NCBI GenBank assembly: GCA_022376515.1
Contig: WTXI01000005.1
Location: forward strand, 1-64,000
Reading direction: 5' to 3'
DNA: 64,000 nt
Source: Lactifluus volemus
Taxonomy: Eukaryota > Basidiomycota > Agaricomycetes > Russulales > Russulaceae
Shown: piece after piece, positions 5,913 through 43,035 of the stretch
Layout of the letters: each line of letters begins with the position of its first letter
How positions within the stretch are numbered: position 1 is the stretch's first letter
Notes under the pieces: generated by a model
Database searches by the model: none
What the model saw: only the letters and a program-made list of their open reading frames with translations
What the model was told of the DNA's origin: nothing
Program-made: the position numbers and the translations under genes

Positions 5913-5924
5913 CTACTAAGGAAG

Positions 5925-7964: not shown

Positions 7965-8000
7965 ATACCCCCTCTCTAGAAGGCAGTCTCACCTGCCACC

Positions 8001-9102: not shown

Positions 9103-9965
9103 AAGCGGCAATGCTTTAGTTCTCTACGCGGTGTAGTGTCATTTGGAAAATCAAATCTCTGAAGACCTCTGGAATCGAGTCCCAGGTGATCAAGTCTGTG
9201 TGGGTGAAGAGTAAGACGTGCTTGTGGTTCCATATCCTGATCTCTCTGCTGAGGACCCCCAGGATTACTGTCCCTCTGGTCAAGCCAATATTCAGTGGTC
9301 CCGTAGGTGGGGAACACTTGAATGGCTTCATCCTTCGTGCTAACTGTGGTCGTCTGGGTGCCAATGCTGCGGGTCTGAGGGGGCGAATCTGGGATCCAAC
9401 TGTCTGTCTGCGCCGCCACGACAGCGGGGATCATGAGAGCACGAAGGAGGTTGATGTGTAACCTGCCTTCATCATCTTCTTCAAACCATTCCTCTTCAGG
9501 GGTCTCTGGTCTAGCGAAGTCACCCAGCCTTTGGGCAACCATGGTGCTACGGCCATCAGTAAAGATGCGGGTGTGCCTCTGGGTTCCAGGGTGGTCTCTC
9601 CTCCACTTGAAGTTGAAAAGGCAGTGAAGACACTGTCGGGTATCCTCGTAGTACTTATAGGGATTGTAAGGCCACTTGTAGTTGTTTTCGTGCTCCACTG
9701 GCCAATCATACGGGATCCCCAGACACACGAGACGGACTTGGCAGTAGTCAACTATAAAGGAGCTGGGGGAAGTGCGATATTCTCGTTTGGGATCGAAGAA
9801 GTCGGCGTCCACCTGGGAAGCTTGGAAGATTTGAGGAAGGGAGAGGTCGAGGTTTGCAGACTGGATTTCCTCCCAAGTGTAAGGGAGTGAGGTAGCAGGG
9901 GAGTTAGTAATGGGAAGCGCAGATGGCTTCCTGACAGAAGTGTTTGTGCTGGCTATGATGGGCAT
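9069..9965 (-). pseudogene. Copy B Pol C-terminal extension, proximal part
   Basis: A frame of 298 codons homologous to residues after the chromodomain in copy C: LPYTWEEIQSANLDLSLPQI, FIVDYCQVRLVCLGIPYDWP, CLHCLFNFKWRRDHPG, then a proline-rich stretch. The real homology ends at 9108, where the solo LTR starts; the last residues of the frame come from that LTR. A two-base insertion near 9985 separates it from the chromodomain frame. The function of the extension is unknown. Confidence 0.75.
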
Positions 9966-11130: not shown

Positions 11131-11134
11131 AACC

Positions 11135-13120: not shown

Positions 13121-13123
13121 CTT

Positions 13124-13577
13124 TCAGCTTTGCCCTGTGGTGGAAAGCTTGATAGGTGGCCCGTGGACTTTCCCTTCCTTCCAATTGATTTGAGGGTCAA
13201 ATTCTCGTAACCAGGGGTATCCTAAGATGATTTGGTCTTTGCCTAGGTTTGTGATAAAGAAGATTTGCGCTGCTTCTTTTCGTTCCTTTAGGACATTGAG
13301 GAGGCAGTAACTGGTGATCTTCCCATCTTGATTCTCTGTCCCATCTACATTGAACACCGTTCGTGGTTCTTGGAGGTTTATTGCTCCCAGGCCTAGTTTT
13401 TCCACCATTCTTGGGTCGATGAAGTTTTCTGTGGCACCACTGTCAAGTAGTGCCTTTTCAGCAGCCGTCTTTGTCGCGCTCGTGAACGATAGGGGAATGT
13501 CCAATGTATTGGTTCTCGAGATACAACATATTTGAGTAAGACGGGCTCGCACCCAGGCTGCACGGGTCGAGCCATTT
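13124..13577 (-). pseudogene. Copy B protease
   Basis: Start of Pol with the aspartic protease site LLDSGATENFID, in the -1 frame from Gag over a five-T run (plus 13578-13582). It ends at TTGQS where a tryptophan codon (TGG in A and C, RSWKLKW) has become TGA. Confidence 0.85.
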
Positions 13578-15162
13578 AAAAATCCTCTTCTTCTACCAGT
13601 CCGTCCAAGGTGCCGTTGAAGGCCCCCTTCCCAATCTTGGCCCTGATGCTCCTGAGCATCTGGATAGGATCATCGTCGTCACCGACTTGCATGGTTTCAT
13701 CATCTTCTTTTTTGCTGGCTCTGGCCTTAGGTTGCTGGGGCGGTTTGGGATTGTTTTGCCTTTTCTTTTTAAGACAATCCCTGGAGAGGTGGCCTTGTTC
13801 CTTGCAGAAGAAGCACCACCCCTCCCTCCTCAGCCTTTGCTTCTCATCTGCTTTTGCTGAGTCGGTTCTAGTGAAATCGATATCCATGGCCCAAGGGTCT
13901 TTCTGAGGGGGGGTTTCTTTCTTTTTGGCCATGAGTTGGCTGGCCCACCAAGGAACGTCCTTCCTGAAGCTGATTTCATGCTTTAGTTGTTGGTAAGCGT
14001 CGTGGTGCTGGGTGGCCAACTCTTGCCAGCCCCTCAGTGTGTTTGGGTTCGCCCCTACTTGTTTGAGCATGCTGGTGAGGAGCCCTAGGTCTAGTCCCCT
14101 CTTGTACATTCTAATGGTGCCGTTGCTGTCGGCGTCCCACCCTGCCTTCTTCCTGAGGCGATTGAACTCGGCTGTATACTGGGCCAAGTTTCCTTTCTTC
14201 ATCTCTAAGTGTTCCAGCCTTGTGATCGCATCGTCTTCTTCGTTAGTGTCCTTGAAGGCATCGTCCAGGGCATCCTCGAAGTTGGTCCAGAGGATCTCTG
14301 CATTTTCTCCATGCTGAACCACTTCTTGTTCGATTGTGTCCAGGTAATCCTGCACCCATGCCGACACCAAGGGTCCTTTGACCATTCCTAGCATCATCAT
14401 GACGCAGTTATAGGGGATTAGCATGTCGTCGTGGTTTTGATTGATGGCTTTGTACATCCTCCATTCCGTTTTGAAGACGTTGTACAAGCCTTTGTCCCCT
14501 TTGAATGGCGTAGGCAGGATGCCCTTCAGGCCATTTCTAGGTGGCATGGCTGGCTGTGCCCCTCCTGCTGCAGCGCCTGCGGCAATGCCACCTCCACCAC
14601 TGCCTCCTCCGCCACCGCCACCTCCCCCGCCGCCTCCACCGCCACCACCGCCTCCACCGCTCTGGCTTGGTCCTGCCATTGCTGTGGTTTGTACTGGCTG
14701 TGTCAGGGTCACTGAGTGGGTGAACATAGGGGTTGGCGAGGTGATGCTAAGGGCACTCATGGCTCGGTCTATGGGGGTGACTGGGGTGATTAATCTGGGT
14801 TCTTCATTTTCTTGTGTGGGTGGAGGTTCTCTGGTTTGGTTATCTTCTGAGGAAGAGTTTGCTTCAGCTGAGTCTTGTTGAGGGGAGGTCGTCCCGCCCT
14901 CGTCCTCACTTTCATCTTTGCTTGCTTCTGACAGTTGCATAGACGGAGGGAGAGCTAGCTCATTGAGGATATAGTCGTACTTGGAGAATTTCATGGTGGG
15001 GTCAGTCCAATACTCGCTGTTTGACCAATAGATACCATACCACTGGTTGTTGATGAATTCGCAGGGGGATCTGTACTTGGTTCTTGATTCTTCCTCTTCG
15101 TGAAAGGAGTAATAGACTGTCGGCTTCTGGTACAACTGGTGCGCCTGTCTTCTGTCTTCCAA
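13576..15162 (-). CDS. Copy B Gag
   Basis: A 528-codon frame, longer than in copy A because an upstream Met codon (MEDRRQAHQLYQ) is present. Order of parts: acidic N-terminus including the CEFINNQWYGIYW stretch, low-complexity linker with a glycine tract, capsid domain, CCHC knuckle CFFCKEQGHLSRDC, and VEEEDF before TAA. The frame is intact although Pol is dead. It could still make a capsid protein if transcribed. Confidence 0.88.
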   Translation of the reverse strand: MEDRRQAHQLYQKPTVYYSFHEEEESRTKYRSPCEFINNQWYGIYWSNSEYWTDPTMKFSKYDYILNELALPPSMQLSEASKDESEDEGGTTSPQQDSAEANSSSEDNQTREPPPTQENEEPRLITPVTPIDRAMSALSITSPTPMFTHSVTLTQPVQTTAMAGPSQSGGGGGGGGGGGGGGGGGGGSGGGGIAAGAAAGGAQPAMPPRNGLKGILPTPFKGDKGLYNVFKTEWRMYKAINQNHDDMLIPYNCVMMMLGMVKGPLVSAWVQDYLDTIEQEVVQHGENAEILWTNFEDALDDAFKDTNEEDDAITRLEHLEMKKGNLAQYTAEFNRLRKKAGWDADSNGTIRMYKRGLDLGLLTSMLKQVGANPNTLRGWQELATQHHDAYQQLKHEISFRKDVPWWASQLMAKKKETPPQKDPWAMDIDFTRTDSAKADEKQRLRREGWCFFCKEQGHLSRDCLKKKRQNNPKPPQQPKARASKKEDDETMQVGDDDDPIQMLRSIRAKIGKGAFNGTLDGLVEEEDF

Positions 15163-19438: not shown

Positions 19439-21262
19439 TTAGTCAGTTTTACGTCGTGACTGGGACGGGCCGGCGACACAAGTGTCTAGGACTTCCATCT
19501 GCTTGCGCTTCTTCTTGATCTCCTCTGCAGTGCCATCCAAAAGACATCCCCCACCGTGCCATGTGTGGTCTTCAGGGACGCGGCACACTCCAAGCCCGGG
19601 CATACAGGAGAAGTGAGGGAAGGGGCAGCCGTCGCTGTTGTGGGTCATCATTCTGTCGTGGAAACGGCAGTGTTTCAGTTCTCTACGCGGCGTAGAGTCA
19701 TTTGGAAAATCGAATCTCTGAAGACCTCCGGAATCAAGTCCCAAGCGATCAAGTCCGTGTGGGTGAAGAGTAAGACGCGCTCGTGGCTCCATATCCCGAT
19801 CTCTCTGCTGAGGACCCCCGGGATTACCGTCTCTCTGGTCGAGCCAATATTCGGTGGTCCCGTAGGTGGGGAACGCTTGAATGGCTTCGTCCTGCGTGCT
19901 AACTGGGGTCGTCTGGGTGCCAACGCTGCGGGTCTGAGGGGGCGGATCCGGGACCCAACCGTCGGTCTGCGCCGCCACGACAGCGGGGATCGTGGGAGCA
20001 CGAAGGAGGTTGATCTGTAGTCTGCCTTCGTCGTCTTCTTCAAACCATTCTTCTTCAGGGGTCTCTGGTCTAGCGAAGTCACCCAGCCTTTGGGCAACCA
20101 TGGTGCTACGGCCGTCAGTGAAGATGCGGGTGCGTCTCTGAGCTCCGGGGTGGTCCCTTCTCCACTTGAAGTCGAAAAGGCAGTGAAGACACTGTCGGGT
20201 ATCCTCGTAGTACTTATAGGGATTGTAAGGCCACTCGTAGTTGTTTTCGCGCCCCACTGGCCAGTCATACGGGATCCCCAGACACACGAGACGAACTTGG
20301 CGGTAGTCAACTATGAAGGAGCCGGGGGAGGTGCAATGTTCTCGTTTGGGATCGAAGAAGTCTGCGTCTGCCCGGGAAGCTTGGAAAATTTGCGGGAGGG
20401 AGAGATCAAGGTTTGCGGATTGAATCTCCTCCCAAGTATAAGGGAGCGAGGTAACCGGGGCGTTAGTAATGGGAAGCGCAGATGGCCTCCCGACAGAAGT
20501 GTCTGTGTCGGCTATGATGGGCGTAGGTGATGTGGATCTGTCGTTTGAGGAAGAACTCGCGGAAGTGAGGGGTAACGAAGGGGGGTTCGTTAGGCTCTTG
20601 GAAGAGGGAGCGAAGCTGCATTGTCTGTTGTCCATCCTCCCCCGTCTTATTATAATCTTCCTTGCCTTTGTTGGGTTTTGTTTGTGAAATTCTTCCACCA
20701 GGTCATCCGCGTGCACCTGGTCAGCTGGTTCCCAGGTGTTGTGGGCGTGGGGGTACCCTTCCCACTTCAGGAAGTACTCGAGGCGCCCCTTGCCACGCCC
20801 TTTTCGCCTGGAGTTCAACACCTGTTCGACTTCGTATTCTTCCTCACCTTCTATTACGTCTGGGGCTGGTTCTGTGAAGGCCTGCCCATTTTCTTCCGTC
20901 TCCTTGTATGGTGATAGAAGGGACGCATGGAAGACCGGGTGGACACGTTTTTGACGCCACTGATCCGGGAGTTTCAGTTTGAAAACTACCGGATTAATCA
21001 CCTGGACCACTGGGAATGGGCCGTATCTTTTTGGGGCTAACTTGGCGAAGGGGTGCGACGTTTTGAGGTTCTTCCCGTCTAGCCAAACTTGGTCTCCTTC
21101 CTTGAAGGGTTCATATGCTCGTCTACCCTTCTTTCGCACATTCCGCTTTTGGAGGAGGTCTTGCGCCCTTTGGATCGCTTGACGCGCTTGGTTACGTTTC
21201 TCCATCAGGTAGTCTTTGCGCCGTTCTACTGCTGGCATCTTCCCTTCCTTATCGTTTGCCAT
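19439..21262 (-). pseudogene. Copy C integrase tail, chromodomain and full C-terminal extension
   Basis: The longest view of the Pol C-terminus (607 codons): integrase tail with KRYGPFPVVQV and FHASLLSPY; chromodomain YEVEQVL, YFLKWEGYP, NTWEPADQV; then about 420 residues of extension. The extension has LPYTWEEIQSANLDLSLPQI, VDYRQVRLVCLGIPYDWP, CLHCLFDFKWRRDHPG, RPETPEEEWFEEDDEGRL, and a terminal Cys/His-rich block (CPFPHFSC, GVCRVPEDHTWHGGGC) with a basic tail. The frame is intact to its stop at 19439. A missing base near 21252 separates it from the rest of the integrase. Confidence 0.85.
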
Positions 21263-22192
21263 ACCGTGGGTGTGTGTCCTATGAGTAAGTCGAACGGGGT
21301 TTGTTTTGTTGTTTCATTGATCCACGAGTTGTGGACGAACTGGGCTAGAGGCAACCAGCTGACCCAGTCATTCTGTTGGAAGTTTCCATAGACGCGCAGG
21401 TATTGTTCTAGCCATTGGTTCGTTCGTTCCGATTGGCCATCTGTTTGGGGGTGGTATGCCGTACTGATGTTCTGGTCAATCCCCAATTGTCTACACAGTT
21501 CCTCGTCCATTTTGATGCAAAGCGCGGATCGCGATCCGAGATCACCCGCTTCGGAGGGCCGTAATGGGGGAACACCTCTTTGGCGTAGCATCTCGCAACT
21601 CCTTCACTGTCGATGGTTTTGTTGCAAGGGATAAAGAATGCCGCCTTGCTACAGTCGTGGTCGGTGATGGTCAGAATACTGTCGTAGCCTTGTGACTCTG
21701 GGAGGTCTGTGATCAGATCTAGGGCAATTGTCGAATATGGGGCGTAGCTTTGTTTTGGGGGATGGGTACCAAGGGGACTTTGGGTCTGGTTGTGCCGCTC
21801 TTGGTGCTTTGACAAGTTGCACACCCCTGCACGTATTTGGTGACGAATGTTCTCATCGTGGGCCACCAGTAATCTTTAGCGATTGTGGACCAAGTCCTCA
21901 TGATCCCCGGATGCCCCGCCGTCTTGTGATCGTGGTACATTTGTAGAATGCTTCGATGCACTGTGGGGTCTTCTGGAACCGCCAATCGGTCGTGGTGATA
22001 CCACTTGGTCCCAAAGCGTGTCCGATGCTTTCGCACTCCTTCTGTTTTCGCCCACTCTTCCAACTGCTGTTGATGTTTCTCTTGAGCGCGCTCTACTTCT
22101 TGTTCTAATGACTGCTCTTCCGTAAAGAGGCGCACAAAGAGTTCTGGGGGCAAGACTAGCACATCCTCGTGGTCATTTCCCCCTGGTCGCAT
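21226..22192 (-). pseudogene. Copy C integrase core (three frames)
   Basis: Overlapping frames 22192-21719, 21866-21408 and 21591-21226 together encode the zinc domain (YHDHKTAGHPGI, CATCQSTKS) and the catalytic core (ALDLITDLPES, VISDRDPRF, TDGQSERTN). All three catalytic acidic residues are present. Single missing bases near 21757 and 21500 break the frame. Confidence 0.85.
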
Positions 22193-23276
22193 CCTGGTCG
22201 TCGTGACAGTGGGTCGGCCTTATTAGTTTTCCCCGGTCATGGACAATCTTCATGTTGTATTCTGCCATCTTAGGGATGTAGCGCGCTACCCGTCGACTGA
22301 TCTTGTGCGCTTCCCGGTAGTACTGAAGGTTAGCGTGGTCGCTGACGACAGTGATGACGTGCGGGGAGCTCAATAGAAGGTGCCGCCAGTGTTCCAAACC
22401 TCGGATCATTGCCAGTAGTTCCCGGTCGTGGATATCGTAGTTCCTCTCTGCTTGGTTGAACGTTCGCGAGTAATATCCCACAGGGCGCAACTTCTGATCC
22501 TTGTCCGGTTGGTGGAGAATTGCTCCACTAGCGTATTGTGACGCATCGACTTCTAAGACAAATGGTTCAGCCAAGTTAGGTCTCTGTAGGACCGGGTCGC
22601 TAGTGACTGCCTTGATTAGTCGATCCACCGCTTGCGTACATTCCTCTGTCCACTCAAACTTGGTGTCTTCTTTAGTAAGTTAGTCAGAGGTCTAGCAACA
22701 TTGGCAAATCCTGGGATGAACTGCCGTTGATAGCCCAAGACTCCGAGCGTACTGCGGACCTCCCGTACTGATTTCAGTTGTCGTGGCCACTCTGCTAGCC
22801 GTGCTTCTTGCTAGGGTCGATGCGAATGGTGCCCTGGTCGATGACGTACCCCAGAAACTCGATCTCTCTTCTGGCGAACTGACATTTTTCCGGCTTCAGA
22901 AAGAGTGACTCCTTCTCCAGAACTTCTAGGTATTCTTTGGTGATTTGATCGTGCAGTTCTGGGTCGTCAGGGGTTACGATGAGGAAGTCGTCCAAGTACC
23001 AGTGAACCCAACGGGGGTATTTCTTTTTCAGATTAGCAAAATGCGGTCTGCCATTCGTTGGAAGGCGGCGGGTGCGTTACACAATCCAAAAGGCATGACT
23101 TTGGCTTCAAACAGCCCCTCGTCTGTTTTCACTGCCGTGATCCACTGGCTGTCCGGGTGAATCCGAATGTTGTAATATCCATCTCTAATGTCAAACTTGG
23201 ACATTAGCTTGGCGTCTCCCATTTGGTCGAAGATGGTGTCGATGCGGGGAAGGGGGTACACGTCCTTACCGTCCAT
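22173..23276 (-). pseudogene. Copy C RNase H and reverse transcriptase (several frames)
   Basis: Frames 22628-22173, 22995-22795 and 23276-23028 hold RNase H (LEVDASQYASGAIL, HDRELLAMIRGLEHW) and RT palm (FGLCNAPAAFQRM; the DDF of YLDDFLIV at 22995). Single-base losses lie near 22230, 22665, 22799, 23040 and 23267. Confidence 0.85.
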
Positions 23277-24127
23277 TCGTTCACTTTTCGGTAGTCATAG
23301 ACGGGTCTCAACTTCCCATCCTGCTTCTTGATGTAGAAGAAAGGGCTGGACCATGCGGATTTCGACCTTGTGATGTATCCTTTATCTTGCTGCTCTGTGA
23401 GAAACGTCCTCATCGATTTGGTTTCTTCCGCCGTTAATTTGTATGTCTTGCAGTTGATTGTCTTCGGGGCATCTGGCAGAAGCGTGATAACGAGGTCTTC
23501 GGGGCGTGAAGGGGGAAAGCGTTTTGCCTCTTCTTCTGAGAAGACCTTGGCGTACTTCTGGAACTGCTCCGGCACGGCTACCTTGCTTTGCCCTTTTCCC
23601 TCTCGTTGAGCCCACTGTTGACTGAAACTCGTTTTACACATTTTCATCCTTTGAGCCGCCCACTTCAGCTTCCAACTTCGCCCGGTGGTGGATAGCTTGA
23701 TAGGTGGCCCTCGAATCTTTCCTTCCTTCCAATTGATCTGAGGGTCAAACTCCCGTAACCAGGGATATCCCAGGATGATCCGATCTTCGCCTAAGTTTGT
23801 GATATAGAAGATCTGGGCGGCTTCTTTGCGTCCTTTGAGAATGTTGAGAAGACAGTAGCTGGTAATTTTACCGTCTTGATTCTCCGTTCCGTCTACGTTG
23901 AACACCGTTCGTGGTTCCTGGAGGTTTATGGATCCCAGGCCTAGCTTCTCCACCATCCTTGGGTCGATAAAATTTTCTGTAGCACCACTGTCGAGTAGTG
24001 CTTTTTCGGCAGCCGTCTTGGTCGCGCTCGTGAACAATAGGGGAATGTCCAGTGTATTGGTTCTCGAGATACGACATATTTGAGTAAGACGGGCTCGCAC
24101 CCAGGCTGCACGGGTCGAGCCATTCAA
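23204..24127 (-). pseudogene. Copy C protease and RT start
   Basis: A 307-codon frame with LLDSGATENFID and GYITRSKSAWSSPFFYIKK, LRPVYDYRKVNEWTV. It runs in the -1 frame from Gag over the same five-T junction as A and B, and breaks after NEWTV where one base is missing. Confidence 0.87.
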
Positions 24128-25544
24128 AAATCCTCTTCTTCTACCAGCCCATCCAAGGCACCGTTGAAGGCTCCTTTCCCAATTTTGGCTCTGATGCTCC
24201 TGAGCATCTGGATGGGGTCCTCGTCGTCACCGACTTGCGTGGTTTCATCGTCCTCCTTCTTGCTAGCTCTAGCCCTGGGCTGCTGTGGCGGTTTGGGATT
24301 GCTTTGCCCTTTCTTTTTAGGGCAATCCCTGGAGAGATGTCCTTGCTCTTTGCAGAAGAAGCACCGTCCCTCCCTTCTCAGTCTTTGTTTTTCGTCCGCT
24401 TTAGCTGAGTCGGTTCTGGTGACATCGATGTCCATGGCCCAGGGATCTTTCTGAGGGGGGTTTCCTTCTTCTTGGCCATGAGCTGGCTGGCCCACCGAGG
24501 GACGTCCTTTCTGAAGCTGATTTCATGCTTCAATTGTTGGTATGCGTCGTGGTGCTGAGTGGCTAACTCTTGCCAGCCTCTCAGGGTGTTTGGGTTCGCC
24601 CCTACTTGTTTGAGCATACTGGTGAGGAGCCCTAGGTCCAGTCCTCTCTTGTACATTCTGATGGTGCCGTTGCTGTCGGCGTCCCATCCTGCCTTCTTCC
24701 TGAGACGATTGAACTCGGCTGTATACTGGGCCAGGTTTCCTTTCTTCATTTCTAGGTGTTCTAGTCTCGTAATCGCGTCGTCTTCTTCGTTGGTGTCTTT
24801 GAAGGCGTCATCTAAGGCATCCTCAAAGTTGGTCCACAGGATTTCTGCATTCTCTCCGTGCTGGACTACTTCTTGTTCGATGGTGTCCAGGTAGTCTTGT
24901 ACCCATGCCGACACTAGTGGTCCTTTAACCATTCCTAACATTGTCATGACGCGATTGTAGGGGATTAGCATGTCATCGTGGTTTCGGTTGATGGCTTTGT
25001 ACATGCGCCATTCGGTTTTGAAGACGTCGTAAAGGCCCTTTTCTCCTTTAAACGGCGTAGGTGGTATCCCTTTTAGCCCGTTCCTCGGAGGAGCGACTGG
25101 TTGGGCCCCAACTGCTGCAGCTGCGGCGCCTCCGCCTCCACCGCCACCTCCGCCACCTCCGCCACCGCCACCTCCGCCACCACCGCCCCCCACCACCTCC
25201 GCCTCCACCACCCTGGCTTGGTCCTGCCATTGCCGTGGTTTGGGTTGGCTGTGTCAAAGTTGCCGAGCGGGTGAACATGGGGTTGGCGATGTGATACTAA
25301 GGGCACTCATGGCGCGGTCTATGGGGGTGACTGGGGTGATCAACGTAGGTTCTTCATTTTCTTGCGTAGGCGGGGGTTCTCTGGTTTGGCTGTCGTCAGA
25401 GGAGGAGTTTGCTCCTGCTGAATCTTGTCGGGGGGATGTCGTCCCGTCTCCGTCCTCGCTCTCGTCTTCGCTAGCTTCTGACGGCTGCAGGGAAGGGGGG
25501 AGCGCTAGTTCATTGAGGATGTAGTCGTATTTGGTGAACTTCAT
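24124..25544 (-). pseudogene. Copy C Gag (frameshifted)
   Basis: Three frames (25544-25254, 25211-24378, 24495-24124) correspond to one Gag: acidic N-terminus MKFTKYDYILNELALPPS, glycine tract, capsid domain, CCHC knuckle CFFCKEQGHLSRDC, VEEEDF stop. Shifts lie near 25282, in the glycine tract near 25190, and near 24463. Confidence 0.85.
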
Positions 25545-25810
25545 AGTGGGATCGGTCCAGTACTCGCTGTTTGACCAGTAAATGTTGTACCACCGATTAT
25601 TGATAAATTCGCAGGGGGATCTGTACTTGGTTCTTGACCCGGCTTCTTCGTGATAGGAGTGATAGGTTGTCGGTTTCTGGTATAATTGGTGCGTTTGTCT
25701 TCTGTCCTCTAAGAACCTGATGCTCCCCTTTTGTTCGATGGTTAGGTCGTCGTCCTCTCTGGGAATGACTCTAGTTCCTAGGTCGTCTTCGTTTGTATCC
25801 CAGACAACGA

Positions 25811-26116
25811 TTAAAGACCCGTCGTTATTCCTGTCCAGCCTTGCGTGTGAAAGGCGATATGATCCCCCGGTAGATAGAGGATCAACGTGTTTCCTTGTTC
25901 AGATTGGAACAACTCTGTTCCTGCACCCAAGATTGTTTCTAGGTGCCCAATGGTGCGTACACAGGAAATGCTGACTTCTTTCCAGCACCTTTGTTCCGAT
26001 CTTCGTTTGGCGTTATACTGTTTCTGTATTGCCTCGTTCTTGTTCAAGTGTGCGTCAATCAACAATTCTTTGATTCGCAGGTAGATTGGTTGTTGTAGAT
26101 AGTCCCAAGTGGACAT
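25811..26116 (-). CDS. Copy C leader ORF upstream of Gag
   Basis: 101 codons, almost identical to copy A's leader (MSTWDYLQQPIYLRIKELL...GWTGITTGL). It is intact although Gag and Pol of this copy are broken. No domain recognised. Confidence 0.5.
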   Translation of the reverse strand: MSTWDYLQQPIYLRIKELLIDAHLNKNEAIQKQYNAKRRSEQRCWKEVSISCVRTIGHLETILGAGTELFQSEQGNTLILYLPGDHIAFHTQGWTGITTGL

Positions 26117-26127
26117 CTACTGGTAGG

Positions 26128-26139
26128 AGCTTCGGCTTT
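26128..26139 (-). other. Copy C primer-binding site, perfect self-priming match
   Basis: Element-sense AAAGCCGAAGCT right after the 5' LTR is the exact reverse complement of AGCTTCGGCTTT inside the LTR (plus-strand 26373-26384). That LTR string begins 33 nt downstream of the T of a TATAAG box (plus-strand 26412-26417), where an RNA start is expected. Confidence 0.7.
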
Positions 26140-26655
26140 TGTTACGGCTCGACTAGGGCCGGGTCCCAACTAGGGTTCGAGTAATTTTGGTCTCTCCTAA
26201 GACCTAGGCTCAGGGTTACCCAAGGTAACGACGCGCAGAGCCCTGTGGTGTTGTAGCACAACCACCAAGCTTCAGTAGCCTTATTAGGGCGTGTAGGAGG
26301 GTAAGAGAAAGAGGGAAAAGAGGAGGAGGGGAGTTCTGTCTTTCAGGAGAGGGAAACAAGTCGATTCAGGTTAAAGCCGAAGCTGGGGTACAAGCTACCA
26401 GCTGAGGCCTACTTATACAATGTATGCTAATTGTTCTACCAAACTAGGGTGGACAATAAGCAAGAAGTCAAGACAATAGAGCGCGAGAACAATGGAGACT
26501 CGGAACAATAACACTGGACTAACTGGGACAGACAATAGCACAATCAGAACAATAGAACAGTCAGCACAATAGAGACAATGTGGACGGGACGTCATCAGGA
26601 TGAGTAACCAGGTCACGGAAAGCATAGGGTCCAACGTGTCCTGCATTCCGTAACA
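26140..26655 (-). repeat. Copy C 5' LTR (516 bp)
   Basis: TGTTACGG to CCGTAACA. Nearly identical to the 3' LTR at 18888-19402: one extra A in a purine run near 26320 and one C/T difference near 26424. Confidence 0.95.
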
Positions 26656-26687
26656 TTTGTTCTTTGTAAACATGCTGCGCTATACAA

Positions 26688-29192
26688 GTGCTGATTCAAA
26701 AAAAAAAAATAGCTGCGCACCATGATCACATTACGGCTGGACACCCCGGAATTTCAAAAACCTTACATGCAGTAGAACAAGGCTATTGGTGGCCCGACAT
26801 GAAAACCTTTATCCGACAATACGTCAAAGGATGCGCCACCTGTCAGACCACAAAGAGTAATACAGTTCGTCCCAAGGTCCCAATTTACCCAATCACCGTC
26901 AAACCAAATGCACTGCCATTTGAAACCATCGCACTCAACCTCATCGTGGACCTCCCACCATCACAAGGCTATGACTCGATCTTGACTATTACCAACCACG
27001 ACTGCACAAAGGCGGCGTTCTTCCTCCCTTGTACGCAGAAAATCGACTCTGAAGGAGTGGCCGCACTCTACGCCCAGCACGTCTTCCCTCACTATGGGAT
27101 TCCCAAGACCATCATATCAGACCGTGACACGAGGTTTACCTCGAAGTGGACAACAGACCTCTGTAAACGACTCAAAATAAACCAAAACATTAGTACAGCA
27201 TATCACCCCCAGACAGACGGCCAATCAGAAAGGACAAACCAATGGCTAGAACAGTACCTTTGAATCTACGGCAACTTCCAGCAAAACGACTGGGCGCGAT
27301 GGCTTCCACTCGCCCAATTTGTGCATAACTCCTGGCCCAGCTCCACCACCGGAAAGACCCCCTTTGAATTACTCATTGGCTTCACTCTGCGCGCCCAGGA
27401 ACAACAGATAACGGACTCGACCCTACCGGCCCTAGATGAACGATCCACTTATCTCTGCGGACTGCGGGAACGAGCGCAAAAGGCCATTCAACAGGCACAA
27501 GACATGACACGGAAGTACCACGAGCGAAAGAAGGGGCAACGCCACTTCCGACCTTTCACCAAGGGACAAATGGTTCTACTCGAGGGGACAAACTTAAACC
27601 TACCATATCCGACGAAGAAGCTTCGACCAAAACGCTTCGGACCTTTCCGCGTCACCAAAGTGGTCTCACCCTATGTGTACAAGCTGGACTTGCCACCCCA
27701 ATGGAAGATCCACAACGTCTTCCATGCATCCCTTCTCACCCCCTATTTGGAAACAGCCGAACATGGCCGAAATCACACCGAGCCACCCCCAGATCTGGTT
27801 GACGATCATCAGGAGTACGAGGTCGAAGAGATCCTCAGATCAAGAAGGCGATACAGAAAACTGCAATACCTCCTAAAATGGAAAGGGTATTCCGCAGCAC
27901 ACAACATGTGGGAACCGGTCGAGAATGTCAATTCCCCGGAGTTAATCCGAGAATTCCACGAGACAAACCCCAAAGCCGTGAGAACCTTGGAAGTCAGGGA
28001 GAATATAAACCCCACTCTTGACCCTCTACCGTCGCTATCCCCCTCTCCTATGGACTTCTCCCCCATCAGAGACTTTATCCTCGACCTTGACATTGCCTCC
28101 CTCGAAGTCCCTGACGACACCTACGCTGCCCTCTTGCTCACCGGCCTCACCCCAGAAGACTTTCAACCTGAGCACCTCGACGTCGACAACGAGTATGCCG
28201 CCTCACTGTCACCCCTCCCAGTACCAGATCCGTCCACCAGGCCCCTCGCACCCGTACCTGTACTCTGGGCCCCTCAGCCCACTCGACCTGCCACTTACAG
28301 CGAGTGGTCCCCTGAGCCCTCCGATGACAACTACCCCTTGCCCGTCGCTCCTCCCAATTCGGAGGAAGAGCCCCCTTCCCTCACGCTCGACGCCTTCCAC
28401 CGCATCGACGAGTGGAGAACCCAGTCGGCCCCGCTACTCAAGGCAGCGGGCCAAGAAGTCTCTCCCTTTTCGTCACCCTCCTCGCGCTCTGAGCCATTCG
28501 ACACCTCTGAGCGGCCCTTCACGCAGGTCAACACCCCCGCCTTCAACAGCGACGGTCATCGATCTGACCAGTCCGTCTCCGCCTCCAGTGATGAGGAGTC
28601 CCAGCTACCACATCAGGACTCCTACTCCAGGTACCCCTCTCCCTCCAGCCTGCATGCATCAGTTACATTGGACGCCGGCTACTCCCGACCCGCTTGGGGC
28701 CATGTTGCCCAACCCTATCAACACACCATTCATACTGGCGCGGAGTCCTACACCTCCCCCGAGAAGGGCAAGGCTCCTGCAGATGGTGGTGCTCGTGAAC
28801 TCTGACGGGAACACGCAGGCATTTGGCACGGCGTTTGTGCCACCGAATACGCGCCTCCTGCACATGGCGCGTGGTATTTCCCTCAGCAGTTTTCCACCCC
28901 TCTAGCCACTACCTGGATCCCAACCTACCCGCCTCCGTCTCCCGTGTTTCTGTACTGTCACCACTGCAATACTGCACGGCCCGACCACTCCGCCGACTTA
29001 TGCCCCATCGACGTCCGCTGCCTGTATTGCGCAGGCGGACACCTCTTGTGTCATTGCCCCTGGCCGCACTTCCTGTGCACGGCCGATGACTGCTTCTGCC
29101 CCGACGACCACGACTTTGCGGAGCCAGAAGGTGTCCGCAACCCTGTCTGGCAGTGCCCTACGTCCCTTGTTTTGCGTCAATGCACCTTTTAA
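26688..29192 (+). pseudogene. Element E integrase, chromodomain and zinc-binding tail
   Basis: One reading frame interrupted only by TGA at 27261 and 28803. Order: zinc domain HHDHITAGHPGI and CATCQTTKS; catalytic core, where the first Asp is replaced by Asn (ALNLIVDLP versus ALDLI in A-C), then SDRDTRF and TDGQSERTN; KRFGPFRVTKV; FHASLL; chromodomain YEVEEIL, YLLKWKGYS, NMWEPVENV; about 300 residues rich in Pro, Ser and Thr; and a Cys/His-rich end CHHCNTARPDHSADLC plus CLYCAGGHLLCHC. The TGA at 27261 stands where A-C have Arg in EQYLRVYGNF. Asp to Asn and Arg to stop both fit C:G to T:A change. Integrase would be inactive. Confidence 0.88.
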
Positions 29193-32452: not shown

Positions 32453-33344
32453 TTATTCCATTATTACAGTAGTTATAATCCTTGGCATGAAGTGTTCACA
32501 CGAAAAGTAGATTACTCCACACAAATTGTACTGGCAGAATGAACCACTCGCTTCAATATTCAAAATGATGTCTAATGCACATAATCCTTCCCATAATTCA
32601 ATTGCTAGTATAGGTGGGTGAAATATAAATAAAAATGAATGGATCAAAGTTTTGTCACATCCATGACATACAGAAGATGATGGGGTAATAAAGTTATCCA
32701 TATATTGTTGTATGGAATAATATGTGGGTGCAGCATGTGTCATAATCTTGCACGAATTAGACGAGTGTTCATCCCTGTCCACTTCATGGTTATTAGGACA
32801 CATAATGAGTGACTTCATAACAGGGAACAGAGAAATTAACAAACAATTCATGACAGCATGTACACTTGTATAACATCCAAATGCAAATTCACCATCTAAT
32901 CGCGCAAACCGATGCCTCATGAAATCCTGTATCTTCTCTAAATTATAAAAGTTCATTCCCATATGATAATGAATATGTGATTTAAATGCAGTGATCAAAA
33001 AATCAAGATGTTCATTGCCCAGTTCATTCCATGCACGCAATATTGTCTCTGGGTTTTCACACCAAACATTGAAGAGTATTGTAAGTATTGCATCATACAC
33101 ACAGCTATTATTCCACCATTGCAAACCAATGGGAACAAATGATTCTGAAGACACATAGTTTTCCATATTGGATACACTTCCTTTGAGCCTTTTCATACAA
33201 TTTGTTTTCAAAACATAGCATTGTAATATCATCAAGAAGTTCAAGTTCGCAAAATTCTTGTTGCAAAGCCCCCAAAGCCCCCCCCATGATTTTAGAGAGG
33301 TGAAATCCACCTAATATCAAAGTTCCTGCAGCACTTGTTCCACA
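32453..33344 (-). pseudogene. Helitron-type helicase C-terminus fused to USP-like domain
   Basis: The minus-strand frame 33348-33108 reads CGTSAAGTLILGGF and GALGALQQEFCELELLDDIT, which match the end of PIF1-type helicases of basidiomycete Helitrons. The overlapping 285-codon frame (33310-32453) then reads WWNNSCVYDAILTILFNVW, the Cys-box style start of a ubiquitin-protease (USP) fold. It has a Cys pair pattern (MCPNNHE; CHGCDKTL) and an IAIELWEG stretch further on. A frameshift near 33190 joins the two. I infer that one gene encoded helicase plus USP-like domain; it is now dead. The USP assignment rests on pattern alone. Confidence 0.6.
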
Positions 33345-33516
33345 CATCAGGAAAACCCATTTTGCCTTAAACTGTATTAGATGCTCCTTAAAGCTTACTT
33401 AAGATGTTGGTAATTAGATCCTCAACTTACCAACATTGAGGATCTAATTACCAACATCTTAAGTAAGCTTTAAGGAGCATCTAATACAGTTTAAGGCAAA
33501 ATGGGTTTTCCTGATG
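33345..33516. mobile_element. 172-bp perfect hairpin (foldback) element inserted in the helicase
   Basis: Two 81-bp arms, 33345-33425 and 33436-33516, are exact reverse complements, with a 10-nt spacer (CTTACCAACA). The ends are CATCAGGAAAACCC and its complement. It is flanked by CA on both sides (33343-33344, 33517-33518). Removing it and one CA restores the helicase reading LSCGTSAAGTL, so the insertion is clean. The larger element at 41355-43033 shares the CATCAGGAAAACC end and the nearby GCTCCTTAAA and TTACTTAA words. Confidence 0.9.
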
Positions 33517-35235
33517 CATGAAAGCACAGTGTAATATTCCTGATGTGTTCACATATATCTCAAGTCTACCACATTGTCCATCCATGTTTTTTCTTGAGAA
33601 GCATAGTCAGTCATACTGAAATTGGGCAACACATCAGGCTGTGAATGTGACATACTGATAGAAGAATCATCTGGCAAATGACAAGTAGTAGTAATACTAT
33701 TCTTAGTTAATGGAACAACATTTAATGGAAGACCATCAAGCTTCACGTTGAGTGGTGGATCCTTGAGTTGGACAAAAAGTGTATCTAATGTGTTAATACT
33801 GTTTATCAATTATAACTGCCATCCATACACAAACACTTCTTATCCCTTCATGATGCAAACTTCTGTTGCAATATTATTTCTTATCATGACAGGCATTCCT
33901 ATACAAAGCAACAATTTTCCAGGTATCAGTTTTGTATTTGCACAAGGTGGTTGATTCTACAAAACCCTCTGAAGATCTGGTGTAATTTTCCCATTATAAG
34001 CCCCTTTTGATCTGGACTTTATCCTTATGTTCCTCTTCTTACATTTAACATCTTTTACATCATCTGAAGGTAGTGAATCTATAGAAAAGAAGTCCACCAA
34101 TTTCTGATTCGACTCTTCTGCAAATCATAATGAACCCAACCAATTAATCTTGTCCTTTAGTGCATTTAGGCACATAATGATCAACACATTTCAAAAACAA
34201 TCATCATTTATTGAAGCTTTGCCAGGTAGATTACTCGAAACATGAGATCTAAGAAAGGTAATATCAGCTGGTGTATATGTTTTATATCGCATATTGGAAA
34301 GGGCTTCGCAAAAGGCACTATTTTCAACAGATTCAACACGCTGCCTCATATTTTGGTGCAAAATAACCACCATTGTGACTTGATGCCATACCAATTGCAG
34401 CCTGTTGGTCCTTCAATGCTGTCACAATCTTGCCTGCAGTTTGACTGTAAAGGGAAGTATATTCGCCACCAATTGCAGGTGGTAGTTGAGCAAAGTCACC
34501 TGCAAAGATCATATTCATCCCTCCAAATGGCATGTCCGGATTATTTAATACATGTGCTAACCTTTCACTGATAAGATACATATCTCTACACAACAACATA
34601 GAAACTTCATCTAAGAAAATATATTGAACACCTACTAATCTAGTTTTTATCTGCGAGAGCTGTACATTAGATGACCAGTTGCCATCTGAGCTGATACCGA
34701 GTACAGAATGATAAGTAGAACCTCCCAATAATGCAGCAGCACTTCCAGTGGGGGCCAATATAAGAAGGCAATACAACTCATTTCTTCGTGAAAAGAATTC
34801 TGAGATAGCACAAAGTACCTGCAATTTTCCAGTACCTGCCATTCCACTGATATACATCTTTAATTATCCAAATTCAGGTCCACAGGAATGATTAATGATG
34901 ATATGAAATGCACAACCCTGTTCTGTATTCAATTTGAAGGATGTCTCTATTTCTTCAATCGTATGACACCATTCTCTTGATTCATATGCATGAGATAAAT
35001 AAGATTTTTTCAACAATACGCACTTCATTAGGTATAAACTGTGAATTCACTACACAGGCCATAGAGAAAGCATTTGAAGTTGCTGGCATGTTTCATGAAC
35101 AAACATCGATAACCTCAGCACGTTTTTCTGCAACAACCCTTTTCCATGCCACACTGTTCTGCTTAATTTCAGGAGAAGTGCGATTGCAATTTATAACAAT
35201 TTCCCACAATCTCAATGCAATGCGTGTGCATATTC
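33517..35235 (-). pseudogene. PIF1-type DNA helicase of a Helitron-like element (decayed)
   Basis: Minus-strand helicase remnant. The Walker A site is GMAGTGK (where usual helicases have GKS), the Walker B site is YIFLDEVSML, and a further motif is MIFAGDFAQLPP, all in frame 34857-34333. Upstream, FKLNTEQGCAFHIIINHSCGPEFG is followed by TAA where a Gln (CAA) is expected, then LKMYISGMAGTGK. Downstream, 33809-33549 reads NTLDTLFVQLKDPP, LNVVPLTKNS, LPNFSMTDYASQEKT, followed by a TGA in place of Arg and HQEYYTVLSC, up to the hairpin insertion. Such helicases unwind DNA during rolling-circle transposition. The Rep part typical of Helitrons was not found. Confidence 0.8.
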
Positions 35236-35450
35236 AACATCAGGAAACTGGTCCCTGCTCCATAGCAACCTGGCGCCTAAGTAGGCACAGTAGCGTGTGT
35301 AGGCCTCAGTAGCCAGGAACATCCTACAGAGCACTCGAGAGCCTATAGTCACAGGCCATGTGCTCTGTAGAACTAGGTAAAACAGGTCACACAGATGTAT
35401 TTTTGGGTATTGTGAACATTGCATTATATTAGGGGTGTGAAGTGGAACTA
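35236..35450. other. Spacer between helicase remnant and Plavaka remnant
   Basis: No coding signal beyond chance frames. Holds an inverted repeat with 11-bp arms (CTACAGAGCAC at 35324-35334 and its complement at 35360-35370). It may mark the edge of one of the two flanking elements. Confidence 0.35.
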
Positions 35451-38010
35451 TCAAACTTTGAAAAAATGGGCAAATTCATGCAGAGAAATGTATGGATTGT
35501 AAAAAAATGAGGATGCTGTTTCAAGAACAGTCTCCAGAGTCCACAACCTCAGGCAACGTGTACCAAACTGGGGTATCAGGTGACAACTTCTCACAATCTG
35601 CTCCACAGGGATGATGTCAACTGCAGGGCCTCGATTATGGGATGCGCGTGTAACGTAATAAAGATGAGAGTCCGGATGCGGCCCTTGAAAGGGCGTGAAC
35701 CATTCGATATAGGCGAGTCTTTGCGGAACGTCGGCTTGTCGGCGCAGATGGACAGGAAGATCAAAATGAGGCGCACCTGGGCAACTCGAAGCCCTAGAGA
35801 TTGTTAAGCCAAGAGTAATTGAATAGAATGGGTCACGCACCATCAAGCACAGTATGTCTCGTCACCTGGTTAACCCCACCTTCTGTCCTCACCAGAACTG
35901 TGTCGAACCCTGCTTTCCCATCGGCAGAACCACGTCCAGTTCCTCCATGAACACGGGTGGCGCAAATTCGGGTGCATTCACTGAAGCAGCCAGAGGCGGG
36001 TGAATCCGGCAACCATATTTTGAGAGCCTTGTAGGCATCAAATGGTCGAAATGATTCGGGAGTACAGGCTTAAGAGGTAGAGGGGAAGAATGTCAGAGAA
36101 AGCCCTGGAGGGCAGAGAGAAATTGGGAAGCACCAAAGTTGTGTACAATCGTCTCGATATCAAGGTGGGAATATGTAGGACGTATTGTTGTAATGTGTGT
36201 GTCAGAATTATGGTCTTCCTCCGAGTCCAAGTCTGAGTCTGAGTCCGAGTCAACTGAGTCACTGGCAAGTCTCCCAAGATAGGCCTCAAATCGCTTCATG
36301 CCTCTTGATGGCCTAGCCAAGCAGTCATTTGGGCAACATATTCCCGTTTATTGCTTGCACGGTAGCCATCCTTAGCGAAATTGATATGAAGGCGTTCAGG
36401 TGATTCCATGTTGTAGCCGTCCAATGAGCCGTGAGACTTGATGGTGTGCAGTAGTGTAGCATGGAATGGATTTTTGGAATATTGAAGTGGGTCCGAATAC
36501 CTGCCTCTACAAAGACGTCCTTGTTGTCATGGAAGATCTTCAGAGCACTTTGGAGGGCATCGACTGTCATAGAGGTGTGAATGTGAAGTTGGGAATAATA
36601 TATGAAGTCAATGATGGCAACCACGATTCTCAAGGTAATTGGTTGAACCGCATCCATGAGAAGTCCGACAAACACGTGTTGCATCTCTCTGTGCTCTTTT
36701 CCCGTCCACTGTGTCACAAATGATATCCCATTCTCGAAGTGCTTCAGTCCCGGAAACCCAGACATAGCTCGGAAATGTGCGTCAACCTCTTCCACACCTG
36801 CCATCTGTGTACACCATTCAACCAAGTGATCTTTGAAGACCCCCTTGTGAAGCTGGTGAAGGATGTCTGGGGTGAAACAAGTAAAAATGTCCGTGTGCGG
36901 AAGATACTTCCAAAATGGATCGAACACTGGTCGCATTCCGTCTTCATGAAATCTTGGTATGCGATGTCCACTTTTTTTATGCGATAGGATGATCTGGGCC
37001 TGTTCTTGAATCCGTGGCATAGACTCCTCCAACTCCCCTCACCTGTCATGCTCAACGCGACACCTTGGACACCGGCTCTCCTTACAACAAGCTACTAGGC
37101 ACTGCTCTGGAAAGTCAGCAACGTAGGCAGCTAGGATCAGGAACACGCGGCGCATCAAACCATCAGCGCAGATGACATCGACACCATCCTTTCCCACTTC
37201 GACCAGAGGCGATAGTAATTTGCACATGCAGTAGTGGAACAGATTGTAGCCTTTTTCAGACTGCACATCTTCAGATACAGACTCAAGGCTCAGAACAGGT
37301 AAGTACCCAATTAATATTGTCACGTGAGTGTTCGGTTGACGTCATTTGGCTTTGTCGATATTGCCCAGGGTCATGTATACGGGCCAGGTGACTTTATCAC
37401 CTCCAAATCGTGATAGCTGGGTCTTGTCTGATGATAAGATGATAGGTGCGATCGTCAAGTTGACTGGCAATTTTTTCTGAGTACTGATCAACATTTGTAG
37501 CAGGATCACACTAGATTGGCCATGACATACCTGCATATCCCACCACCAATTCGCAGTCCACATCTGCGAGTATTGTCGCTGTGTACCTGTGTCGTCGACA
37601 TAGACTCGTTCCGGAGCATATGCCAGTGAGTCCTGGAATTCTGGAATTCTGAGAAGGTCTGCCACGCATTCAACAGGGTCGCGCCGCCATTCGTTCAAAT
37701 CATCTTGACCCAAAATTGCAGCTGCAGCGAGGTCGACATCCAGGATGTCATCATCATCAACGGCAACTGTTAGACTTGAACTGATAGTAGAGGTGACTCA
37801 GATGGTTGGCAGTACATCATCTGGTTCCTTTGACCAGATGTTGTCAAGGTAGTTACTGAACTCCTTTTCTGCAGCTTGTCTGCATCTGCACGCTTGCCTG
37901 ATGTGTCGTCTCAACCCAGGTGTGGAGGGAAATGGCCCAGCTCAACAAATGCCACATATGTGGCCAGGGAGCTCAACAGGCATGCGCCTCTGCACCTCTG
38001 CATCTCGTCT
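35451..38010 (-). pseudogene. Plavaka-type (CMC superfamily) transposase, decayed
   Basis: Read from right to left on the minus strand: a zinc-finger-like start (CGIC, a stop, then FPSTPGLRRHIRQAC near 37920) and KEFSNYLDNIWSKEPDDVLP; frame 37713-37342 with DPVECVADLLRIPEFQ, WTANWWWDMQ and SSDKTQLSRFGGDKVTWPVY; frame 37323-37039 with [22 protein letters not shown] and [10 protein letters not shown]; frame 37032-36325 with [33 protein letters not shown] and [16 protein letters not shown] sequence; frame 36320-36093; and the C-terminal frame 35846-35451 with FFYNPYISLHEF. Stops and frame changes separate the pieces. Plavaka elements are cut-and-paste transposons abundant in Agaricomycetes. Terminal repeats were not identified. 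Confidence 0.85.
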
Positions 38011-41327: not shown

Positions 41328-41354
41328 ACACTAACATGCTGCTCATTATCCTTA

Positions 41355-43033
41355 CATCAGGAAAACCTGTTTCAGCTTAAAGGCTCCTTAAAATTTACTT
41401 AATTTTATTATATAACTCCTACAAAGATTTCAGGCAACCACTATTCTAAAAATATTTTGCTTAAAAGCTGCTTGAAATTCTGTAGTTTGCTTGTCAACAG
41501 TGAGGATCTAATGGAGCTGCTTAGGCTAAGCATATTAAGCAGAGCCTCAGCAGCTATTTAAGCAGAGCTTAAGCAGCTATTTAAGCCTGTTAAGCAGGGC
41601 ATGAAATTATGTTCACAAGCAGACAAATTCACACAAGTCAAAAAAAAATTCAAACTGCAACTTTATTGAAATTATCTAAACTAGGGGTACAAAAACTAAC
41701 TAATCTGTGCTAACACACATCTACCCATTGCCTAAGTCACATTCAACCTCACACAAACAGCAGGTGGCACACTGGCATGGGTGGGGCTGCAGGGCCATGG
41801 GGAGGTGGCGGCAGTGGTGGAGGCATGGGAAGAGGTGGGGGGAGGACACATGGGAGGAGGCGCGGGGAGGAGGCACAGGGAGGAGGCGTGGGGAGGAGGC
41901 GCGGGGAGGAAGCGTGGGAGGAAGCGCGGGGAGGAGGCACGGGAGGAGGCGAGGGGTGCGGGAGGCACGGGAGGAGGCGAGGGGTGCGGAAGGCACGAGA
42001 GAACGCGCGGGAGGCGCAGGGGAATACGCAGGGTGCGGAAGGAGGCGAGAACGCAGGAGGAGGTGCAGGGCACGGAAGGAGGCGAGGAACGCAGGAGGAG
42101 GCGCAGAGCGCAGGAAGCGCAGGTGAAGGCGCAGGGGTGGGAGGCGCGGGAGGAAGTGCGGGAAACGTAGGAAGAGGCGCAAGCGGGACAGGAAGCGCAG
42201 GAGGCGGAAGTGGCGCAGGAGATGGTGATCCAGGCGGCAGAGGCGGAGGAGGCGATGAAAAGAAAGTCAGACGCGTTGGGGCGGGGCAGGCAGCATGACA
42301 ACGTACCGGCGCAGGCAGCGTCCTCGCAGTGCCAGTGGATCCAAGAGAGGGCAAAAGCGGTGGGGGAGGCGCAGGAACAGGAGGCATCTGACGACGCAAC
42401 AGAGGCAGAGGCAGAGGCAGAGGCAGAGGCAGAGAAGGAGAGGAGGCGGAGGCGGAGGCGGCAGCAGTGGGACGCGTTGCACCAGGAGGGGACGCGTTGC
42501 ATGACAACGAACCAGGAGGCAGTCGCGGTCGCAAGAAGGCGGCAGGGAGGCATCACCAGACAGGGAGCAGCGGTGGTGGCGACGGCAGAGGCCACAGAGC
42601 AGACAGACAAGGGAGGGGACAAAAGGATGCGGCAAAAAAAGATGAGGCACGAAAATCAACATGGTGCCAACAAGAATAAACAATGGAGCATATGATTCCT
42701 TTTAAGGAAATGTCAGAGGGGGAGGGCAACGAAAATTAACATCGTGCAAACAAGAATAAACAAAAAACACGTGATCTGTAACGACTTAGCGAAATTTTCA
42801 TGATTTAACAAAAATTTCAGACACCTTACTTAATTTACTTAATTTACTTAGACAATTTTTGTGTACTTAGCATCCTTGACTGGTGATTTATGTCCTTAAT
42901 TTTATTAGATTGGCTTAATTAGCTTAGATTATTTCAATTTGCTTAGTCTTAATGGTGCTAAGCTATCTAAGCCTGCCTTAACAACACTAAGCAGTGGCTA
43001 AGCCTGTCTAAGGCCAACTGGGTTTTGCTGATG
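41355..43033. mobile_element. CATCAG-family inverted-repeat element with TA duplication (1679 bp)
   Basis: The left end CATCAGGAAAACCTGTTTCAGCTTAA and the right end, read inverted (CATCAGCAAAACCCAGTTGG), are imperfect terminal repeats. TA flanks both sides (41353-41354, 43034-43035). The ends match those of the 172-bp hairpin element. Subterminal sequence is rich in TTAAG and GCTTAA words. The core (about 41770-42690) is purine-rich. No transposase is recognisable. Confidence 0.65.
41770..42690. repeat. Purine-rich low-complexity core (GGAGGCG-type and AGAGGC repeats)
   Basis: The plus strand is almost all G and A with short repeated words such as GGAGGAGGCGCGG, and a clean AGAGGC hexamer array at about 42400-42435. 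All frames on both strands stay open for long stretches because of composition, so the 130-300 codon frames here are not evidence of genes. The strand asymmetry suggests a capacity for triplex or G-rich structures. Confidence 0.75.
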
Positions 43034-43035
43034 TA

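What the first reader, a model, noticed from the sequence alone, without database searches (positions are those of the whole stretch)
33345..33516. Perfect 81-bp-arm hairpin element with a readable empty site
The two arms are identical over 81 bp with a 10-nt spacer. The element sits between CA duplications, and its removal restores the helicase codons LSCGTSAAG, so exact ends and target are known. Perfect arm identity inside a gene that has itself decayed implies recent insertion or arm homogenisation. Such a transcript would give an 80-bp dsRNA and could seed small RNAs.
Basis: seen in the sequence. Interest (0 to 1): 0.75.

Follow-up and report, generated by a model that had tools for sequence, protein, structure and literature searches.

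The report
Hairpin mini-transposon with matched arms
The 172-base hairpin is a short transposon without genes, present in many near-identical copies in this fungus-like genome and probably moved by a larger transposon with the same tips; its two halves seem to be copied onto each other now and then, which keeps the hairpin perfect.

Summary
Window 33345-33516 is a 172-bp palindrome with perfect 81-bp arms and a 10-nt spacer between CA duplications. It is not an assembly artefact: 18 exact copies lie at 18 sites, and its end motif occurs 112 + 120 times against 0 for the control. A 2-bp target duplication flanks 65 of 88 distinct copies. An uninterrupted paralog of the target exists at 96% identity.

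It is a MITE. Its termini (CATCA..TGATG) and 2-bp duplications match those published for PlavakaB transposons (PMC12730594, passages). Three 6.2-kb elements enclosing a Plavaka transposase domain share its terminal 14 bp. Mobilisation by Plavaka is inferred.

The more interesting part is the arms. In the C lineage 6 of 27 distinct arm pairs are symmetric against 0.57 expected by re-pairing, with 13 distinct paired variants against 5.6 (0 of 2000 shuffles for both). In the window's own S lineage the signal is weaker: symmetric pairs do not exceed chance. Occasional arm homogenisation through the hairpin is the best reading. Small-RNA seeding was not testable.

The parts
33343..33344 (.). left target-site duplication, CA
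   Evidence: read directly; the joined empty site with a single CA matches C43:14148-14545 without net insertion
33345..33425 (+). left 81-bp arm, begins CATCAGGAAAACCC
33426..33435 (.). 10-nt spacer (hairpin tip)
33436..33516 (-). right 81-bp arm, perfect reverse complement, ends GGGTTTTCCTGATG
33517..33518 (.). right target-site duplication, CA
32453..33310 (-). 285-aa open frame just beyond the insertion, part of the interrupted host region; no Pfam family
   Evidence: two relatives called hypothetical protein, 85% and 62% identity, among 86 candidates
34333..34857 (-). PIF1-like helicase fragment of the host region
   Evidence: Pfam PF05970 E=5.9e-19
36325..37713 (-). decayed Plavaka transposase (two ORF fragments) upstream of the helicase fragment on the same strand
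   Evidence: PF18759 E=1.1e-21 and 1.3e-33; whole-genome hit 36811-37704 with 2 stops inside
41355..43033 (+). longer (1,679-bp) relative with similar ends, flanked by TA / TA (41353-41354, 43034-43035)
   Evidence: similarity beyond the first 16 bp at its left end (0 of 1000 base shuffles as high) but not at its right end (431 of 1000)

Best explanation
The feature is a non-autonomous, almost entirely palindromic DNA transposon (a MITE) of 172 bp. It probably moves by cut-and-paste, carried out in trans by a transposase of the PlavakaB type that recognises about the terminal 14-17 bp (CATCAGGAAAACCC) and duplicates 2 bp of target, mostly of the form NA. The window's subfamily is a recent burst. 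The copy studied landed in a multi-copy, transposon-like gene region with helicase and Plavaka fragments. The arms stay identical partly because the copies are young and partly because one arm occasionally serves as template for the other, most simply by DNA-polymerase template switching or mismatch correction in the extruded hairpin, so that a new variant comes to stand on both arms. Shown: copies, ends, duplications, empty site, 14-bp ends shared with elements that carry a Plavaka gene, and paired arm variants in the C lineage. Inferred: mobilisation by Plavaka, the template-switch mechanism, and the order of events.
For: 18 exact 172-bp copies at different sites and 29 within one mismatch, the 18 included; 16 of the 18 have a 2-bp duplication. 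65 of 88 distinct elements have matching 2-bp flanks: AA/TT 20, TA 19, CA/TG 18, GA/TC 3, AG/CT 3, AC/GT 1, AT 1; the NA classes make 60 of 65 against 0.50 of dinucleotides in the flanks. Published PlavakaB features are 2 or 3 bp duplications and termini CATCA..TGATG (PMC12730594, passages). Plavaka domain: 168 matches, pieces counted apart, in this genome and 0 of 14 control genomes. The end CATCAGGAAAACCCB occurs 29 times (control 0); 22 of the 29 form 11 inward-facing pairs, three of them 6.2 kb long and enclosing a Plavaka domain hit; the one read whole, C590, has a 555-aa frame with that domain, E=1.1e-80. Empty-site paralog. Arm co-variation in the C lineage: 6 of 27 distinct pairs symmetric (null 0.57, 0 of 2000), 13 distinct paired variants (null 5.6, 0 of 2000), 19 paired deviations (null 11.2, 47 of 2000), and 4 of 6 two-copy variants with both copies in one element (chance 0.019 each).
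Against: No element with the full 81-bp arm and a transposase was found; the Plavaka elements share only the terminal 14 bp and have 17-bp terminal repeats, and whether their gene is intact was not tested. Of five longer elements with the CCCT end whose ends I read, two (C590 GA, C301 AG) have matching 2-bp flanks and three (C16, C512, C49) do not. 23 of 88 MITEs lack a matching duplication; by lineage 41 of 49 S, 15 of 28 C and 9 of 11 others have one. In the window's S lineage, 2 of 23 distinct pairs are symmetric (616 of 2000 shuffles reach this), 5 paired variants (55 of 2000), and 0 of 4 two-copy variants lie in one element. One variant (alignment column 61, A) sits on one arm in three S elements, so moving does not always correct the arms. 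Only 8 of 176 arms are closer to their own partner than to every other arm (63 ties, 105 farther).
Confidence: 0.8

Rival explanations
1. A MITE mobilised by another superfamily with short duplications (Stowaway/Tc1-mariner, PHISTA, ESTA or EnSpm/CACTA).
For: Short duplications and CA..TG termini are common to most of the CMCT clade (PMC12730594, passages). The shared end with the Plavaka elements is only 14 bp.
Against: Duplications are not restricted to TA (19 of 65). The termini are CATCA, not CAC. Elements with a Plavaka domain and the same 14-bp ends are present.
Confidence: 0.1
2. The arms are identical only because each palindrome was born recently by one snap-back copy of a transposon end; there is no later homogenisation.
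For: The window's burst is young (18 exact copies). S-lineage symmetry is not above chance after collapsing identical pairs. A longer relative without long matching ends exists in the window.
Against: Six C-lineage arm pairs of the same length (172 bp) and with the same spacer region carry different variants on both arms. Independent births would have to hit the same tip each time.
Confidence: 0.25
3. Assembly artefact or a chance palindrome.
For: Palindromes are hard to assemble (recalled); raw reads were not available.
Against: 18 exact copies with different flanks, 16 of 18 with duplications; uninterrupted paralogs of the target; z = -32.
Confidence: 0.01
4. The element is kept as a hairpin because its transcript yields dsRNA and small RNAs with a regulatory role.
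For: One strand folds at -139.5 kcal/mol.
Against: No expression data here; no Rfam family in the window at the gathering threshold; transposition explains the dispersed copies.
Confidence: 0.05

Closest known systems
PlavakaB DNA transposons (CMCT clade), PMC12730594
   Same: Termini CATCA..TGATG and 2-bp duplications; same terminal 14 bp as three 6.2-kb elements of this genome that enclose a Plavaka domain.
   Different: 172 bp, no coding sequence, 81-bp perfect arms instead of 17-bp terminal repeats.
Palindromic MITEs (Stowaway- or Tourist-like; recalled)
   Same: Short, non-coding, many copies, terminal inverted repeats, target duplication.
   Different: Duplication not fixed to TA or TAA; nearly the whole element is repeat; ends of Plavaka type.
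Correction of inverted repeats by template switching, PMC8604942 (abstract and passages)
   Same: One arm templates the other, so arms become identical and paired substitutions appear.
   Different: There in short repeats of yeast genes, with spacer inversions; here in dispersed 81-bp arms, with the spacer out of phase in 1 of 26 scorable asymmetric elements (2 more not scorable).

Membership tests
PlavakaB transposon | termini CATCA..TGATG | tested here: met
   window and copies; definition from PMC12730594 passages
PlavakaB transposon | 2 or 3 bp target duplication | tested here: met
   2-bp match in 65 of 88 distinct elements; 3-bp match in 4 of 89
PlavakaB transposon | encodes a Plavaka transposase | tested here: not met
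   172 bp, too short for the gene; so it is not filed as a PlavakaB transposon but as a MITE with PlavakaB-type ends
PlavakaB transposon | ends shared with a Plavaka-carrying element of the same genome | tested here: met
   14 terminal bp shared with the C590, C16 and C512 elements; no similarity beyond that was established
PlavakaB transposon | candidate helper's transposase lies in the PlavakaB, not the PlavakaA, branch | not tested
   no tree built; the helper's termini match PlavakaB
MITE | short, non-coding, terminal inverted repeats, target duplication, many copies | tested here: met
Stowaway / Tc1-mariner MITE | TA target duplication only (recalled) | tested here: not met
   19 of 65 are TA
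EnSpm/CACTA | termini CAC..GTG with 3-bp duplication (PMC12730594, passages) | tested here: not met
   termini CATCA..TGATG; 3-bp match in 4 of 89
Foldback / MULE hairpin elements | 8-10 bp target duplication (recalled) | tested here: not met
   flanks agree over 3 bp in only 4 of 89

The most novel reading that the evidence does not exclude
Hairpin transposons of this kind evolve in concert within themselves: variants repeatedly spread from one arm to the other through the extruded hairpin, so that perfect palindromes are regenerated many times and seed new bursts. The same hairpin also rearranges its surroundings: one copy sits at the centre of a 52-bp inverted flank duplication without target duplication, and sibling elements or other DNA have entered at the hairpin tip.
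Probability: 0.45. Interest if true: 0.6.

Novelty: new member of a known kind. Interest (0 to 1): 0.42.

Why it matters
It links a palindromic MITE family to the little-studied Plavaka transposons of fungi. Two paper searches (Plavaka with MITE, Plavaka with non-autonomous) listed four papers, none of which names such a MITE in its title or in the shown start of its abstract; I read passages of one of the four only. It also gives a natural data set, over 200 end matches or roughly 115 dispersed copies, in which arm homogenisation in a eukaryotic genome can be measured. Long perfect palindromes are normally unstable (recalled), so how they persist and multiply is a real question.

Tried and rejected
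L078 (C334, 2,365 bp between matching ends) first looked like a longer parent. Comparison showed a 172-bp MITE with about 2.19 kb of other DNA entered at position 82|83, in the spacer. L090 (2,018 bp between ends) is two separate MITEs. L140 (C35), chosen because its DNA matched part of L078, shows retroelement-like frames by eye and no end within 3 mismatches of the 14-bp motif. L141 (C118), chosen because an end lay about 4.5 kb from a Plavaka fragment, ends in another MITE. Rfam: no match in the window at the gathering threshold. Target preference for palindromes: 2 of 89 insertions have inverted flanks of 9 bp or more, shuffled mean 0.19, and 2 was also the highest value in 200 shuffles; too few to claim. 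Spacer inversion as a companion of homogenisation: 14 of 14 asymmetric S elements and 11 of 12 scorable asymmetric C elements (2 more not scorable) keep the spacer in phase, so it is not general. Over all arms, the mean distance within elements was 0.035 against 0.078 between, but this mixes lineages, and only 8 of 176 arms were closest to their own partner (63 ties, 105 closer to another arm); the shuffle within lineages is the fairer test.

Rows left out: of 89 extracted elements, L124 was dropped for having the same flanks as L112. L001-L008 and L048-L077 were not read because they repeat places already held. Elements with an end more than 2 of 16 bases off, or shorter than 140 or longer than 200 bp, were not counted. 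One search used 77 of the 88: those 172 bp long with both arms of one lineage (lineage set by an inner alignment column, not by the end). About 115 elements are expected, so 88 are a part, picked from the best or most exact matches.

Full report
What is there. Window 33345-33516 is a 172-bp palindrome: 81-bp arms with no mismatch and a 10-nt spacer, flanked by CA on both sides. As a single RNA strand it folds at -139.5 kcal/mol against a mean of -29.8 for 200 shuffles. Removing the element and one CA gives the frame LSCGTSAAGTLILGGFH on the minus strand. A paralog at C43:14148-14545 runs through the junction at 96% over query bases 1-398 of 400, with no net insertion. Of the 25 matches in that search 16 cross the junction, among them C102 (93%) and C237 (92%); two of the others are the window's own flanks. 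So the ends and the target are exact.

How many and where. A DNA search of the window's own genome (62.4 Mb, 628 contigs) scored 40 of 119 candidates, and all 40 were full-length places, the window's included. The 22-nt end motif has 112 forward and 120 reverse matches at up to 3 mismatches, 0 and 0 for the reversed control, so roughly 115 elements if ends pair. From the loci fetched I extracted 89 elements of 140-200 bp, 88 after dropping one with the same flanks as another. Eighteen are exact copies of the window element, the window's included, and 29 are within one mismatch. Of the 18 exact copies 16 have a 2-bp target duplication; L012 and L014 do not. Over all 88, 65 do (41 of 49 S, 15 of 28 C, 9 of 11 others). 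Sixty of these 65 are of the form NA (or TN read the other way), where the flanks would give about one half.

Family. Kojima 2025 (PMC12730594; passages seen; author name recalled) describes PlavakaB transposons of Agaricomycotina: 2 or 3 bp duplications and termini CATCA..TGATG. The window element fits both. Plavaka transposase domains are abundant here (168 matches, pieces counted apart; 0 of 14 control genomes). To look for a helper I searched for ends that continue differently from the MITE. CATCAGGAAAACCCB gave 29 places, control 0. Twenty-two of them form 11 inward-facing pairs: three of 6,221-6,222 bp (C590, C16, C512), each enclosing a Plavaka domain hit, and eight of about 2.1-2.2 kb (C49, C162, C301, C334, C368, C490, C607, C618). 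Two sister patterns gave 63 places with a control of 2 and 1 and 11 places with control 0. The C590 copy, the only one read whole, has a 555-aa frame with the Plavaka domain (E=1.1e-80, profile positions 97-325 of 325), 17-bp perfect terminal repeats and GA on both sides; C301 has AG on both sides; C16, C512 and C49 have no matching 2-bp flank. Whether any copy is intact was not tested. The shared end is 14 bp, short but exact. I therefore call the window element a MITE with PlavakaB-type ends, probably moved by such a helper; that step is inferred.

Relatives in the window. A longer element lies at 41355-43033 with TA on both sides. Its left end resembles the MITE beyond the first 16 bp (0 of 1000 base shuffles score as high), its right end does not (431 of 1000). 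The host region of the MITE carries, on the same strand, a PIF1-helicase fragment and two Plavaka fragments, and the target has many diverged paralogs in the genome. The MITE thus entered a multi-copy transposon-like gene region. The organism was not identified; Agaricomycete is an inference from Plavaka and DUF6532 hits.

The arms. Two main arm types occur, S (the window's) and C, told apart by an inner alignment column: 55 elements are S on both arms, 32 C on both and 1 mixed. S elements mostly end CATTTTGCC or CATTTGGCC, C elements mostly CATCTGGCC. Six C arm pairs (L099, L100, L103, L105/L112, L107, L113) are symmetric and carry changes on both arms, some seen in no other element (alignment columns 25 in L099, 55 in L100, 66 in L105/L112) and some also seen on single arms elsewhere (columns 38, 41, 42, 46, 70). 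After collapsing identical arm pairs and re-pairing arms at random within a lineage, the C lineage (28 elements, 27 distinct pairs) has 6 symmetric pairs (null 0.57; 0 of 2000 as many), 13 distinct paired variants (null 5.6; 0 of 2000), 19 paired deviations (null 11.2; 47 of 2000), mean arm difference 3.59 (null 4.19; 19 of 2000 as low), and 4 of 6 two-copy variants with both copies in one element (chance 0.019 each). The S lineage (49 elements, 23 distinct pairs) has 12 paired deviations (null 5.15; 1 of 2000) and a lower arm difference (1.91 against 2.51; 1 of 2000), but symmetric pairs (2; 616 of 2000) and two-copy variants (0 of 4) do not stand out, and distinct paired variants (5; 55 of 2000) only slightly. 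The shuffles ignore the kinship of elements within a lineage, so their figures are guides, not probabilities. Homogenisation is thus clear in C and only suggested in S. It is occasional: young S copies carry single-arm changes, and one of these (column 61) is shared by three elements. Template switching between repeat arms is known to homogenise them (PMC8604942; abstract and passages). That paper also reports spacer inversion; here the spacer is in phase in 14 of 14 asymmetric S and 11 of 12 scorable asymmetric C elements, 2 more not being scorable, so spacer inversion is not a regular companion.

Rearrangements at the hairpin. L100 holds one MITE at the tip of another, the outer arms being perfect, the outer spacer lost, no inner duplication, and TG on both outer sides. 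L101/L136 sits at the centre of an inverted flank duplication of about 52 bp (2 mismatches) without target duplication; a 28-nt piece of that flank occurs once more in the genome, at C9 with 3 mismatches. L111 lies at the spacer edge of another MITE with TA duplication, and L078 has about 2.19 kb of other DNA in its spacer. Another, L114, is broken at about position 28, so entry is not confined to the tip. These are few and are offered as leads only.

Verdict. The finding is real, exact and mostly as read. The kind is known (MITE); the Plavaka link and the arm co-variation are the new parts. In the papers searched, Plavaka together with MITE gave two papers and Plavaka with non-autonomous two. 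I read passages of one of these four (PMC12730594) and only the listings of the others; two further searches gave none and one gave 21 papers, 20 listed, none read. Absence from print is not established.

Noticed in passing
window 41355-43033: A 1,679-bp element with CATCAG-type ends and TA on both sides encloses a G-rich, repetitive middle; a longer relative of the hairpin in the same window.
   Followed up: partly
window 646-15162 and 19439-28805: Gag, reverse transcriptase, integrase and chromodomain frames of Ty3-type retrotransposons in the ORFs tested there.
   Followed up: no
window 32453-37713, minus strand: Plavaka transposase fragments, a PIF1-helicase fragment and an unassigned frame lie in one row; possibly one large decayed transposon carrying a helicase.
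   Followed up: partly
L136 1449-1724 (C138): A MITE at the centre of a 52-bp inverted flank duplication with no target duplication; possibly hairpin-primed inverted copying.
   Followed up: partly
L100 (C118:45538-45931): One MITE sits in the tip of another MITE with perfect outer arms; the compound has its own TG duplication.
   Followed up: partly
L078 (C334:1402963-1405327): A MITE with about 2.19 kb of other DNA in its spacer, parts of which recur elsewhere in the genome.
   Followed up: partly
C49, C162, C301, C334, C368, C490, C607, C618: Eight 2.1-2.2 kb elements with the same 14-bp ends as the Plavaka elements; probably a second non-autonomous family (ends of two read).
   Followed up: partly
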